NCBI RefSeq assembly: GCF_009455635.1
Contig: NZ_QPER01000001.1
Location: 3,720,001 to 3,784,000, forward strand
Length of the DNA stretch: 64,000 nt
Direction: 5' to 3'
Origin: Paraburkholderia agricolaris
GTDB lineage: Bacteria > Pseudomonadota > Gammaproteobacteria > Burkholderiales > Burkholderiaceae
In this document: in pieces, positions 56,404-60,559 of the stretch
How positions within the stretch are numbered: position 1 is the first letter of the stretch
Layout of the letters: each line of letters starts with the position of its first letter
Notes under the pieces: model-generated
Told to the model about the DNA's origin: nothing
The model's input: the letters and a program-made list of their open reading frames with translations, nothing else
Database searches by the model: none
Program-made: the position numbers and the translations under genes

Positions 56404-56500
56404 CGCAAGACCGTTTTCCGCATCGCCCACACCTTCCTTTCGTTGTGCGCTTTCTCGGCGCCACCGCAGAAATTTCGTACGGTTTGCTGATCATTGCACA

Positions 56501-56538
56501 GGCACCATGCTCCGACTATTTTGTGGAGCAGTGCAATG
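56501..56538 (+). promoter_or_regulatory. leader hairpin covering the SD of the first DUF2844 gene
   Basis: TGCTCC (56508-56513) pairs with GGAGCA (56525-56530), which contains the GGAG ribosome site seven bases before the ATG at 56536. The same hairpin and upstream GGCACCATGCTCCGAC recur before the second copy. A TTGCAC-N17-TATTTT promoter pattern (56494-56522) overlaps it, so it may be DNA-level instead. Confidence 0.5.
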
Positions 56539-57012
56539 AGACTTCTGAAGATCGCAATGCTGGCCGCAATGCTGTTGCCGCTCACATCGCATGCAACGCT
56601 GGGCGGCGCACCGAGCGCCAGCTCGTCCTCTCCGACCATGCTGCGCGCTACGCCTCAGTCTGCCGCGAGTTCCAGCACGGGCTCAGCAAACGCCACCGCC
56701 GCCGCGCCCTATACGGTGCGCGAGTCGCGCGACGCCAACGGTGTCACGATCCGCGAGTATGTACTGCCCAGTAACGTCGTGTTCGCCGTCACGTGGGAAG
56801 GGCCGATACGTCCGGACATGACGGCGTTGCTCGGCAGCTATTTCCCCAACTACGTCAGCGCCGGCGAGAGCCGCGCGCGCGGCACCGGTCCTCTGATCGA
56901 AGGCAACGGCGATTTCCGCATCGAATCGGCTGGCCGGCTGGGGCATTTCTTCGGCATGGCGTATCTGCCGCGCCTGATGCCAGCCCATGTGCTCGCGAAA
57001 GATCTGCAGTGA
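56536..57012 (+). CDS. DUF2844 secreted protein, copy 1
   Basis: The 158-residue protein has a signal peptide cut after SHA, a Ser/Ala/Pro-rich spacer to about residue 60, then a conserved beta-rich part: PYTVRESRDANGVTIREYVL, NVVFAVTWEGPIRPD, and GRAR/ESRARGTGPLIEGNGDF. It is likely periplasmic or exported. No catalytic motif is visible. It is 32 bases before the DUF3443 gene and paired with it again 1.5 kb downstream, which suggests a functional link: inhibitor, chaperone or substrate of that protein. Confidence 0.8.
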   Translation: MRLLKIAMLAAMLLPLTSHATLGGAPSASSSSPTMLRATPQSAASSSTGSANATAAAPYTVRESRDANGVTIREYVLPSNVVFAVTWEGPIRPDMTALLGSYFPNYVSAGESRARGTGPLIEGNGDFRIESAGRLGHFFGMAYLPRLMPAHVLAKDLQ

Positions 57013-57044: not shown

Positions 57045-58346
57045 ATGAAAATATTTAGCAAAGCGCTCTGGGTCGTCGCCGCGATTTCCAGTGTGGCGCT
57101 TGCCGCATGCAGCGGCGGAGGCAGTGAAAGCAGCAATCAAGGTGGCAATTCCATCGGCTGGAACGCGACCCCCGACTGGATAAACAAGCCGGGAGGTTCC
57201 GGCAGTTCCGGCGATCCGGCCACGCCATCCGGCGACAAGAACAATACGGTAGCGATTCGCGTCGACAACTCGATGGGCACCATCAACATGCTTTCCGCGA
57301 CGATCACCGTATGCGTGCCCGGCACGCAAGGCGCCAGCCAGTGCACGACGATCGACCGCATGCTGGTCGATACCGGCTCGGTGGGCGTACGCATTATGGC
57401 CAGCGCAATGCCCACGCTCAGCTCCCGGTTGCTCACCCAGGTCGGCGCTGTCGACGACGCGAGCGGCACGGCCCCGATCGCCGAATGCATGCCGTTCGGT
57501 TCGGGCACGACCTGGGGCTCGGTGAAACGCGCCGACGTCACGATCGGCAGCCGTACGGCAAGCAATATCCCCATCCAGTTGATTGGCGACGGCGCATACA
57601 CCATCCCGTCGGACTGCGTGGCACACGGCGGCCCGGATCTCAGCACTGTCGAACGACTTGGCGCCAACGGGATTCTCGGCATCGGGTACGGAACACGTGA
57701 TTCGAAAGACGCGCTGACCACCGCGCTGCCGGGAAATTATTACTATTGCACCGGCACCAACGCCTGTTTCAACACGCGCATGCTGGTGACCAAAGAGGTG
57801 ATGAACCCCGTCGCCGCTTTCCCGAGCGACAACAACGGCACGATCATCCGCCTGCCCAAGCTGCCTGTGGGAGGCCAGACGAGTGTCATCGGTGAACTCA
57901 CATTCGGTATCGGCACGCAGTCAAACAATGCGTTGCCGTCCAACGTGAATGTTCTGGCATTGGATGAGTACGGCGAATTTACGACTCAATACCAAGGCCA
58001 GGTGCTCAGCTGGAGCGCACTCGACAGTGGCACCAACGCCTTCGCATTCCAGGACGATGCAATCCCCACTACGTCGGGTTGGTACACGCCGTCAACCGCA
58101 CTGAACCTGGCAGCCACGATGGAAGCCACCAACGGCAAGGGGACGCCCGTCAATGCGCCATTTACGATCGACAACGCCGCCCGCGTGTGGGCAAACGGAA
58201 ATGCCGCTTACGACAACGTCGGCTGGTATCAGTCCAGCTCGAAGATGTTCCTGTGGGGCCTGCCCTTCTTCTACGGACGCAGTGTCTACACGACGGTGGG
58301 CAACGGCACGATAGGTAAGCAGAGCGGACCGTTTGTCGCCTTTTAA
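57045..58346 (+). CDS. DUF3443 lipoprotein, pepsin-like, copy 1
   Basis: The 433-residue protein has a lipobox LAAC (Cys22), so it is probably a lipoprotein, and a Gly/Ser-rich linker. Two motifs match the catalytic pattern of pepsin-type proteases: LVDTGSVGV (Asp109) and SALDSGTNAF (Asp327), 218 residues apart. Between them, GANGILGIGYGT resembles pepsin's DGILGLAYP, and the end [15 protein letters not shown] resembles ILGDVFIRQYYTVF. The family has no assigned function that I know. The protease reading is my inference; retroviral-type dimers are excluded by the two motifs in one chain. Confidence 0.8.
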   Translation: MKIFSKALWVVAAISSVALAACSGGGSESSNQGGNSIGWNATPDWINKPGGSGSSGDPATPSGDKNNTVAIRVDNSMGTINMLSATITVCVPGTQGASQCTTIDRMLVDTGSVGVRIMASAMPTLSSRLLTQVGAVDDASGTAPIAECMPFGSGTTWGSVKRADVTIGSRTASNIPIQLIGDGAYTIPSDCVAHGGPDLSTVERLGANGILGIGYGTRDSKDALTTALPGNYYYCTGTNACFNTRMLVTKEVMNPVAAFPSDNNGTIIRLPKLPVGGQTSVIGELTFGIGTQSNNALPSNVNVLALDEYGEFTTQYQGQVLSWSALDSGTNAFAFQDDAIPTTSGWYTPSTALNLAATMEATNGKGTPVNAPFTIDNAARVWANGNAAYDNVGWYQSSSKMFLWGLPFFYGRSVYTTVGNGTIGKQSGPFVAF

Positions 58347-58480
58347 CCGCCGCTGCGTGAAATGGGAGGCGATATCGCAAGGCGTCGTCTCCCTGCCTCG
58401 GCGGGAGGCTAACGAGTTGCGAAGTCGGCGTTTCCTACTCCACGTTAGGAATTGTCCGGCACTCTCATTGCTGGCCCGCA

Positions 58481-58519
58481 GGCACCATGCTCCGACCTGT
58501 TTTTTGGAGCAATTTAATG
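58481..58519 (+). promoter_or_regulatory. leader hairpin covering the SD of the second DUF2844 gene
   Basis: TGCTCC (58488-58493) pairs with GGAGCA (58506-58511), again seven bases of spacing from GGAG to the ATG at 58517. The 16 bases 58481-58496 are identical to those before copy 1. No well-spaced promoter overlaps here, which favours an RNA role. Confidence 0.5.
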
Positions 58520-58969
58520 AAATTTGTAAAGATCGTGCTGGCCGCAGCGGCCATGTTGCCGCTCGCGTCGTATGCGGCGTTGGGTGGAGCACCGGGTGCG
58601 GGGTCGGCCCCTAAGTCCTTGCTCCAGTCCGCCGCGCCTACCTACTCTTCCGCAACCACTGCGGCTTATACCGTGCGCGAATCGCATGACACCGACGGCG
58701 TCAGGATTCGCGAATACGTGCTGCCTACCAATGTCGTGTTTGCTGTCACCTGGCAAGGGCCTGTGCGCCCCGATATGGTCGCGCTCCTCGGCAGCTACTT
58801 TCCGAACGCAGTCTCCGCAGGTTCGGGACGCGCGCGCGGCACCGGTCCGTTGATCGAACGCAACGGCGACTTTCAGATCGAGTCCGCGGGCCGGGCGGGA
58901 AACTTCTTCGGCAAGGCAGTTTTGCCGCGCCTCGTCCCTGCGAATGTCCGTGCTGACGATCTGCAGTAA
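58517..58969 (+). CDS. DUF2844 secreted protein, copy 2
   Basis: This 150-residue paralogue of the gene at 56536 has a signal peptide ending SYA-AL, a shorter spacer, and the same core: YTVRESHDTDGVRIREYVLP, NVVFAVTWQGPVRPDMVALL and GRARGTGPLIERNGDFQIES. The end (VLPRLVPANVRADDLQ) aligns with copy 1. The strong match in the core and weak match in the spacer point to an old tandem duplication. Its function is unknown. Confidence 0.8.
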   Translation: MKFVKIVLAAAAMLPLASYAALGGAPGAGSAPKSLLQSAAPTYSSATTAAYTVRESHDTDGVRIREYVLPTNVVFAVTWQGPVRPDMVALLGSYFPNAVSAGSGRARGTGPLIERNGDFQIESAGRAGNFFGKAVLPRLVPANVRADDLQ

Positions 58970-59002: not shown

Positions 59003-60559
59003 ATGAAGACTCTCAATAAGAAACTTTGCTTCGCGTTGCTAACGGCCAGCCTGGCTCTTTCGGCCTGCGGTGGTGGTGGTGGCGACGACGGCGACTCGAA
59101 CGCGACCAAAAACAACGACAAACCGGCAACACCGACGCCGAGCCCAACGCCGTCGCCTACGCCTAGCCCGAGTCCCGCGCCGGCGCCGGCTCCGACACCG
59201 ACACCGACACCGACTCCAACTCCGACTCCGACTCCGACTCCAACCCCGACTCCAACCCCGACACCAACTCCGACTCCAACCCCGACTCCGACTCCAACCC
59301 CGACCCCGACTCCGACTCCGACTCCAACTCCAACTCCAACTCCAACTCCAACTCCAACTCCAACTCCGACTCCGACTCCAACTCCGACTCCGACTCCGAC
59401 TCCGACTCCAACGCCAACCACCGACGTGAACACCGCGCCTATCGTCATTGATCGCACAATGCCCGGTGCCTCGGTCAACATGCCATACGTGAGCGTCGCC
59501 ATATGCATCCCTGGCGTGCAAGATGCCAACCAATGCGTAACCATCGATCACATGCTGCTCGACACTGGATCGGCGGGCGTACGCGTAATGGCCAGTGCAC
59601 TGGGGTCAGCACTCGCCGGCCGATTGCCGGCGCAGACAGGGGCCTCCAACGATCCGACCGGAGGTTCCCCAATCGCCCAATGCGCAACGTTCGGGGCCGG
59701 CTACACGTGGGGTTCAATCAAACGTGCCGACGTAACGATCGGTGGCAAGACGGCAGGCAATCTCCCAATCCAGGTGATCGGCGACGCTGCGTATCCCAAT
59801 GTCCCGTCAGATTGCGCTTCGCGTGGCATCAGCAACATCGGCAGCACGGTAGCCGCACTCGGCGCCAACGGCGTGGTCGGCATCAGCCCTTCGCGGACCG
59901 ACTATCCATCTGCGGCACAATCCGCTCTGTCGGCCACCTACTACTATTGTCCGTCCACGGGATCATGCACCGGCGCGCGGGTGCCGCTCGACACGCAGGT
60001 CATGAATCCGGTCGCCAACTTCACGTCGGACAACAACGGCACGATCGTGCGCCTGCCCGCATTGCCAGCAGGTGGCCAGGCAACGGCGACAGGTGAATTG
60101 GTTTTCGGCATTGGTACCCGGCAAAACAACGCGCTCCCGCCGACTACAACCGTTCTAAAGGTGGATAACAGCGGTGCCTTCACCACTGTCTATCAGGGGC
60201 GCACACTCACTAGCTATGTCGATAGCGGAACCCCGATACTCTGGTTCCCGGATACGGCGACGCCAGTAAGATGGGACGACTTTTACGTGCCGCCGACTAC
60301 GCTCAACCTATCCGCCACGTGGTATTCCGCCGACTATTCGACCGTCAGGAAAACCGGTACGGTTCTAACGGTGCCGTTCTCGATCGCCAACTCGTCAAAC
60401 CTGCTGGCGAGCCAGTACGCTGCCTATGGCAACCTCGGCAGATTCTGGTCCGAATGGACCTTCCTCTGGGGTTTGCCGTTCTTCTACGGCCGGGATATGT
60501 ACACCGCGCTCAGTAACGCCAAAGTCGGTACGCAAACCGGACCGTTTATTGCGTTCTGA
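59003..60559 (+). CDS. DUF3443 lipoprotein, pepsin-like, copy 2 with TP-repeat linker
   Basis: The 518-residue paralogue has a lipobox LSAC (Cys22), a Thr-Pro repeat linker at about residues 42-138, then the same domain as copy 1: [11 protein letters not shown] (Asp187), [20 protein letters not shown] (Asp407) and [15 protein letters not shown]. Both Asp motifs are kept, 220 residues apart. The rigid linker would hold the domain away from the membrane. It is the last gene before a strong terminator. Confidence 0.82.
59185..59417 (+). repeat. hexanucleotide tandem repeat encoding Thr-Pro
   Basis: About 39 units of CCGACT or CCAACT (and a few CCGACA) run in tandem. Each unit adds one Pro-Thr pair, so changes in copy number keep the reading frame and alter only linker length. 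It is not a CRISPR array, as there are no spacers. Confidence 0.9.

What the first reader, a model, noticed from the sequence alone, without database searches (positions are those of the whole stretch)
57045..58346. DUF3443 copy 1 looks like a bacterial pepsin-type aspartic protease lipoprotein
One chain holds both LVDTGS (Asp109) and LDSGT (Asp327), with a GILGIGY segment between and a C-terminal LPFFYGRSVYTTV that mirrors pepsin's LGDVF-RQYYTVF. The order and spacing match the two lobes of family A1. Pepsin-like enzymes are rare in bacteria and I know of no function assigned to DUF3443.
Basis: partly seen in the sequence, partly recalled or inferred. Interest (0 to 1): 0.75.

Follow-up and report, generated by a model that had tools for sequence, protein, structure and literature searches.

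The report
Pepsin-like lipoprotein with adjacent partner
An unexplained family of bacterial lipoproteins is predicted to fold like the stomach enzyme pepsin, with both catalytic aspartates conserved and a second unexplained gene almost always beside it, so it is probably an exported protease whose activity still has to be tested.

Summary

Added here: DUF3443 is paired with another unknown family, DUF2844. All six copies in this Paraburkholderia genome are adjacent pairs, and the same 10 of 398 phylum genomes carry both. In four of five genomes of the window's family, one pair lies beside cheZ. Activity, substrate and inter-Asp distance were not measured. Best reading: a membrane-anchored pepsin-type endopeptidase with a dedicated DUF2844 partner.

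The parts
57045..58346 (+). DUF3443 copy 1, the predicted pepsin-like lipoprotein (433 aa)
   Evidence: model; fold
57045..57110 (+). Lipoprotein signal peptide, residues 1-22, lipobox LAAC, lipidated C22, Ser at +2
   Evidence: sequence; the aligned column is Cys in 206 of 241 and a gap in 35; +2 is Gly 194, Ser 3, gap 44; lipidation and the +2 sorting rule are recalled knowledge, not tested
57111..57233 (+). Low-confidence linker, residues 23-63
   Evidence: pLDDT < 50 for 6-63; dN/dS 0.43-0.72 in 5 of 6 ortholog comparisons, 0.13 in the sixth
57363..57380 (+). N-lobe catalytic loop LVDTGS; D109 codon 57369-57371
   Evidence: D109 in 240 of 240 sequences with the column; aligns with the catalytic DTGS of PF00026 proteins
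57486..57545 (+). Flap-like hairpin, residues 148-167, with F151 at the pepsin Tyr75 position
   Evidence: hhalign pairs F151 with a near-invariant Tyr of alignment A4, which pairs with a Tyr of BACE2; strands E144-151 and E154-167
57669..57680 (+). N-lobe psi motif G209-I-L-G212
   Evidence: aligns with GILGLAY of A4
58020..58034 (+). C-lobe catalytic loop LDSGT; D327 codon 58023-58025
   Evidence: D327 in 241 of 241; aligns with VDSGTN of A4
58251..58292 (+). C-lobe psi-like motif [14 protein letters not shown], residues 403-416
   Evidence: aligns with LGLPLMNNYFTVF of A4; G405 in 240 of 240 with the column
56536..57012 (+). DUF2844 copy 1, partner gene with a Sec-type signal peptide by eye, 158 aa, ends 32 bases before the DUF3443 start
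   Evidence: PF11005 E 3.2e-34; pairing
58517..58969 (+). DUF2844 copy 2
   Evidence: PF11005 E 1.7e-32 (scanned from 58508)
59003..60559 (+). DUF3443 copy 2 (518 aa) with a long Thr-Pro linker
   Evidence: PF11925 E 1e-117; hexamer array 59186-59409, 37.3 copies
56502..56534 (+). Predicted hairpin covering the GGAGCA ribosome-binding region of DUF2844 copy 1
   Evidence: z -2.03; 9 of 200 shuffles fold as well
58488..58511 (+). Equivalent hairpin before DUF2844 copy 2
   Evidence: z -1.29; 24 of 200 shuffles fold as well

Best explanation
DUF3443 copy 1 is an exported, membrane-anchored, single-chain aspartic endopeptidase of the pepsin type. Step 1 (inferred from the lipobox and the +2 residue): it is exported by Sec, lipidated at C22 and sent to the outer membrane, with residues 23-63 as a tether. 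Step 2 (predicted with high confidence): residues 64-433 form two lobes, each contributing a psi-loop Asp (D109, D327) to one active-site cleft, and the hairpin 148-167 is the flap. Step 3 (inferred): the two Asp activate water and cut peptide bonds of periplasmic or surface proteins, with Phe151 and Arg116 at the positions of pepsin's Tyr75 and Trp39. Step 4 (adjacency shown, role inferred): the DUF2844 protein made from the gene next door is its dedicated folding helper, inhibitor or substrate-presenting partner; the 41-residue linker of DUF3443 looks unstructured, so nothing in the chain itself resembles a folded prosegment.
Against: No PDB aspartic protease is found by sequence, and PF00026 does not match P0001 or copy 2 up to E 10. 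hhalign probability is only 39% with alignment A3, and 8% (score 31.8, 200 columns) with the 13-sequence alignment A1, for which no shuffles were run. Foldseek TM-scores are modest (0.41-0.59) with rmsd 6-10. The flap Tyr and Trp39 are replaced, which could weaken or alter catalysis. No activity report was found, and the inter-Asp distance was not measured. DUF2844's role rests on gene order and co-occurrence alone.
Confidence: 0.75

Rival explanations
1. DUF3443 keeps the pepsin fold but works as a binding protein or inhibitor (as plant xylanase inhibitors of the TAXi type do; recalled), not as an enzyme.
For: The flap Tyr and Trp39 positions of pepsin hold Phe (240 of 241) and Arg (240 of 240 with the column); pepsin-fold non-enzymes are known (recalled).
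Against: D109, T110, S112, D327 and G329 are invariant wherever the column is present, and position 328 is Ser in 240 and Thr in 1 of 241, which is unexpected if catalysis were lost. Rawlings and Bateman list Phe at the flap Tyr position in two of their seven bacterial A1 homologues (Marinomonas, Sinorhizobium).
Confidence: 0.17
2. DUF3443 and DUF2844 form a structural envelope complex in which the cleft holds the partner and no peptide is cut.
For: Adjacency of the two genes in many genera, in either gene order; lipoprotein plus signal-peptide-bearing partner; one paralogous pair beside cheZ in four genomes.
Against: It does not explain conservation of the DTG/DSG chemistry, the flap and the psi motif together.
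Confidence: 0.06
3. The pepsin resemblance is superficial and the protein is an unrelated beta-rich lipoprotein.
For: No HMMER match to a PDB aspartic protease or to PF00026.
Confidence: 0.02

Closest known systems
Peptidase family A1 / Pfam PF00026 (pepsin, BACE, plasmepsins)
   Same: Two lobes, DTG plus DSG catalytic loops, a flap-like hairpin, N-lobe hydrophobic-hydrophobic-Gly motif, similar C-terminal strand.
   Different: No PF00026 match, 11-18% identity in the listed structural alignments, Phe at the flap Tyr, Arg at the Trp39 position (numbering recalled), lipoprotein anchor.
The seven bacterial pepsin homologues of 2009 and shewasins A and D (PMC2761423: abstract and part 1 of Results; PMC4814920: abstract and opening)
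   Same: Bilobed bacterial pepsin-type proteins with both Asp.
   Different: Those have no predicted signal peptide, and shewasin D accumulates in the cytoplasm. Six of the seven have Ala at 218, where DUF3443 has Ser or Thr in 240 of 241. DUF3443 has a lipoprotein signal and is paired with DUF2844.
PecA and related PE_PGRS aspartic proteases of mycobacteria (PMC6819658: abstract and four passages)
   Same: Surface-associated bacterial aspartic protease with DTG/DSG motifs.
   Different: Type VII secretion and PE_PGRS architecture; in a Pfam scan of the 13 DUF3443 members of alignment A1 the PE-PGRS_C model was not among the 11 families listed.
Retropepsin-like RLO proteases of Pseudomonas aeruginosa (PMC12239564: search listing only)
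   Same: Secreted bacterial aspartic proteases.
   Different: Described as retropepsin-like, whereas DUF3443 holds both Asp motifs in one chain.

Membership tests
Peptidase family A1 (PF00026) | Two pepsin-like lobes in one chain | tested here: met
   On a predicted model only:
Peptidase family A1 (PF00026) | One catalytic Asp in D-T/S-G-S/T in each lobe | tested here: met
Peptidase family A1 (PF00026) | Hydrophobic-hydrophobic-Gly psi motif in each lobe | tested here: inconclusive
   N-lobe: Gly212 in 241 of 241, positions 210 and 211 hydrophobic apart from one Pro. C-lobe: G405 in 240 of 240 with the column, W404 in 227 of 241, but the residue before it is often Asp
Peptidase family A1 (PF00026) | Flap Tyr75 | tested here: not met
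   Phe in 240 of 241, Tyr in 1; two listed bacterial A1 members also have Phe
Peptidase family A1 (PF00026) | Match to the PF00026 profile | tested here: not met
   No match for P0001 or copy 2 up to E 10, nor among the families listed for the 13-member scan
Peptidase family A1 (PF00026) | Remote sequence homology to PF00026 members | tested here: inconclusive
   hhalign 40.0, probability 39%, 0 of 150 shuffles, 39.7 without P0327; P0327 crosses both profiles; alignment A1 gives only 31.8, probability 8%
Peptidase family A1 (PF00026) | Acid protease activity inhibited by pepstatin | not testable with these tools
   needs a bench assay
DUF3443 (PF11925) | Profile match above curated cut-off | tested here: met
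   372.8 bits against 25
Bacterial outer-membrane lipoprotein | Lipobox Cys, no Asp at +2 | tested here: met
   LAAC-S by sequence; no signal-peptide predictor was run and localisation was not tested

The most novel reading that the evidence does not exclude
DUF2844-DUF3443 is a previously unrecognised two-gene exported proteolysis module: a membrane-tethered pepsin with a trans-acting partner (chaperone, inhibitor or substrate adaptor). It has been multiplied to as many as six pairs per genome so that different paralogs process different surface proteins, with one pair kept beside the chemotaxis/flagellar genes.
Probability: 0.35. Interest if true: 0.8.

Novelty: new variant of a known kind. 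Interest (0 to 1): 0.64.

Why it matters
Two families of unknown function would gain one testable function. The bacterial pepsin homologues described in 2009 lacked signal peptides; an exported, lipid-anchored family with at least 3231 relatives at E <= 0.001 in one capped search would change where and how widely such enzymes are thought to act. It would also give a new outgroup for the origin of two-lobed aspartic proteases, and the partner gene offers a direct genetic handle.

Tried and rejected
Sequence searches of the PDB with P0001, alignment A1 and alignment A2 found no aspartic protease. NCBIfam gave nothing for DUF3443 copy 1 or either DUF2844, and four matches far below cut-off for copy 2.

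Viral structure library: nothing at E <= 0.001; the weak top match is a retroviral gag proteinase fragment, E 4.3e-3. Rfam: two matches, both far below gathering scores. Plasmids: five records with a DUF3443 match, from Burkholderia (3), Paraburkholderia (1) and Caballeronia (1), all typed non-mobilizable, so nothing there points to a mobile element.

Not done: inter-Asp distance (no coordinates available), prediction of a complex with DUF2844, structure of copy 2, a systematic survey of neighbouring genes.

Full report
Observation. It matches DUF3443 (PF11925) at E 2.1e-111; copy 2 at 59003-60559 matches at 1e-117; the ORFs just upstream of both match DUF2844 (PF11005). The genome looks like Paraburkholderia: the closest named locus is P. 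fungorum LMG 16225, 96% identical in the best segment. It holds six DUF3443 genes. 'DUF3443' occurs in no paper of the library. The 11 papers found for 'DUF2844', 'PF11925' or 'PF11005' all hit only the string PF11005, in papers that by their titles concern malaria parasites.

Sequence link. HMMER gives no pepsin match for P0001, copy 2 or the family alignments. To go further I took bacterial PF00026 proteins: 7 of 398 genomes of the phylum sample carry a match at E <= 0.001, 6 over the cut-off; none of the seven is among the 11 with a DUF3443 match, and the window's genome has none. Four of these proteins and 27 of the 120 listed relatives of one of them went into alignment A4 (31 sequences); L070 and L071 were left out. 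hhalign of the DUF3443 alignment A3 against A4 scored 40.0 over 285 columns, pairing D109 and D327 with the two catalytic Asp, F151 with the flap Tyr, GILGIG with GILGLAY and [12 protein letters not shown] with GLPLMNNYFTVF. None of 150 column shuffles reached it (maximum 24.8); the reversed profile scored 18.2; leaving out P0327 gives 39.7. The reported probability is only 39%, and a smaller 13-sequence alignment (A1) scored 31.8 with probability 8%, aligned as far as the second Asp. A4 itself matches BACE and pepsin in the PDB, with the DTGS and flap register explicit for BACE2. One PF00026 protein, P0327, also passes the DUF3443 cut-off (25.3 against 25 bits; one of four scanned, the only one of 120 with that precomputed domain), and the Asp_protease_2 and gag-asp models each touch one of 13 DUF3443 members at E 0.02-0.03.

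Conservation. In 46 diverse sequences D109, T110, S112, R116, D327 and G329 are invariant. In the 241 fetched sequences D109 is present in 240 of 240 with the column (one truncated), D327 in 241 of 241, R116 in 240 of 240, F151 in 240 (one Tyr), and the residue at pepsin 218 is Ser 140, Thr 100, Ala 1. These are mostly Paraburkholderia, being the best 120 of each of two searches, so the 46-sequence set is the more diverse test. Six Cys (90, 100, 148, 191, 235, 241) are nearly invariant, fitting an exported disulphide protein. Orthologs show dN/dS 0.11-0.21 in the domain.

Anchor. C22 follows LAA and is followed by Ser; where the columns are present, homologues have Cys, then Gly or Ser. By the recalled +2 rule this means outer-membrane sorting. 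Rawlings and Bateman (PMC2761423, abstract and part 1 of Results read) state that their bacterial pepsin homologues lack signal peptides; shewasin D (PMC4814920, abstract and opening) is mainly cytoplasmic. PecA of mycobacteria (PMC6819658, abstract and four passages) is the surface-located bacterial precedent I found.

Partner. The genome has six DUF2844 genes, each next to a DUF3443 gene. In the phylum sample DUF3443 over cut-off is in 10 of 398 genomes, DUF2844 over cut-off in 10 of 398, the same ten. All 17 over-cut-off DUF3443 genes listed have DUF2844 directly upstream; in G061 the DUF3443 domain lies some 1 kb into a long frame. In the order sample 14 of 150 have DUF3443 over cut-off and 13 of 150 have DUF2844, all within the 14. 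Of 20 over-cut-off DUF3443 genes there, 19 lie next to a DUF2844 match by their coordinates, 18 with it upstream and one (G430) downstream; the match in G415 reads through one TAG. The exception, G470, has a downstream neighbour with a sub-cut-off DUF2844 match (19.5 bits, cut-off 22.4). Adjacency that survives a change of gene order argues for a working pair. The two DUF3443 matches below cut-off, G137 and G508, come without a DUF2844 match. What DUF2844 does is not known; its fold search was weak.

Chemotaxis neighbourhood. Of the five genomes of the window's family with DUF3443 in the phylum sample, four (the window's, G322, G324, G249) have one pair next to cheZ. On the other side flhB follows directly in the window's genome and G322, and after two more ORFs in G324; in G249 I identified no flhB. 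The fifth, G292, shows nothing resembling it around its only pair; a type IV pilin-like ORF lies nearby (by eye). This is not a systematic count.

Mechanism and verdict. I read DUF3443 as a membrane-tethered pepsin-type endopeptidase with DUF2844 as its dedicated partner. Fold, motif conservation and pairing are shown by computation; lipidation, cleavage, substrate and partner role are inferred. It is not filed as a PF00026 member, because the profile match and the flap Tyr were tested and not met; it is a distinct A1-like family. No paper connecting DUF3443, or a Burkholderia lipoprotein, with pepsin-like proteases appeared in what was listed (20 of 141 listed); most subscription papers are outside that library.

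Noticed in passing
window 56499-56534 and 58479-58511; L001-L011: An identical 18-base stretch CAGGCACCATGCTCCGAC precedes both DUF2844 genes, and with the following GGAGCA it can form a hairpin hiding the ribosome-binding site. Similar leaders are in the orthologous tandem loci; folding z-scores range from -1.3 to -4.2 in six leaders, weakest in the window itself. Could be a translational switch.
   Followed up: partly
window 59186-59409: Copy 2 carries a CCGACT hexamer array of 37.3 copies encoding a Thr-Pro linker; array length and unit differ in two orthologs looked at (39.8 copies in L001, 12- to 24-base units in L011), so the tether length varies between strains.
   Followed up: partly
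L053 4159-16512(-) and L027 (genome G137, contig C33): A 4118-aa frame beginning with a lipoprotein-like signal; the 1080-aa stretch scanned has Big_9/cadherin-like domains, a DTG...DSG aspartic protease-like region (Asp_protease_2, 30.1 bits) and PD40 repeats. It touches the DUF3443 profile at E 3.9e-4, below cut-off, and may link the families.
   Followed up: partly
L039, L048, L049, L052: A paralogous DUF2844-DUF3443 pair lies beside cheZ in four genomes, with flhB on the other side in three.
   Followed up: partly
L021 / L043 (genome G061): DUF3443 here sits at the end of an 819-aa open frame with extra upstream sequence before the protease domain.
   Followed up: no
L047 8086-8640(-): In genome G292 an ORF that by eye looks like a type IV pilin lies about 1 kb beyond the DUF3443 gene.
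   Followed up: no
L006 9402-9898: The second DUF2844 gene of this ortholog locus looks split between two reading frames.
   Followed up: no
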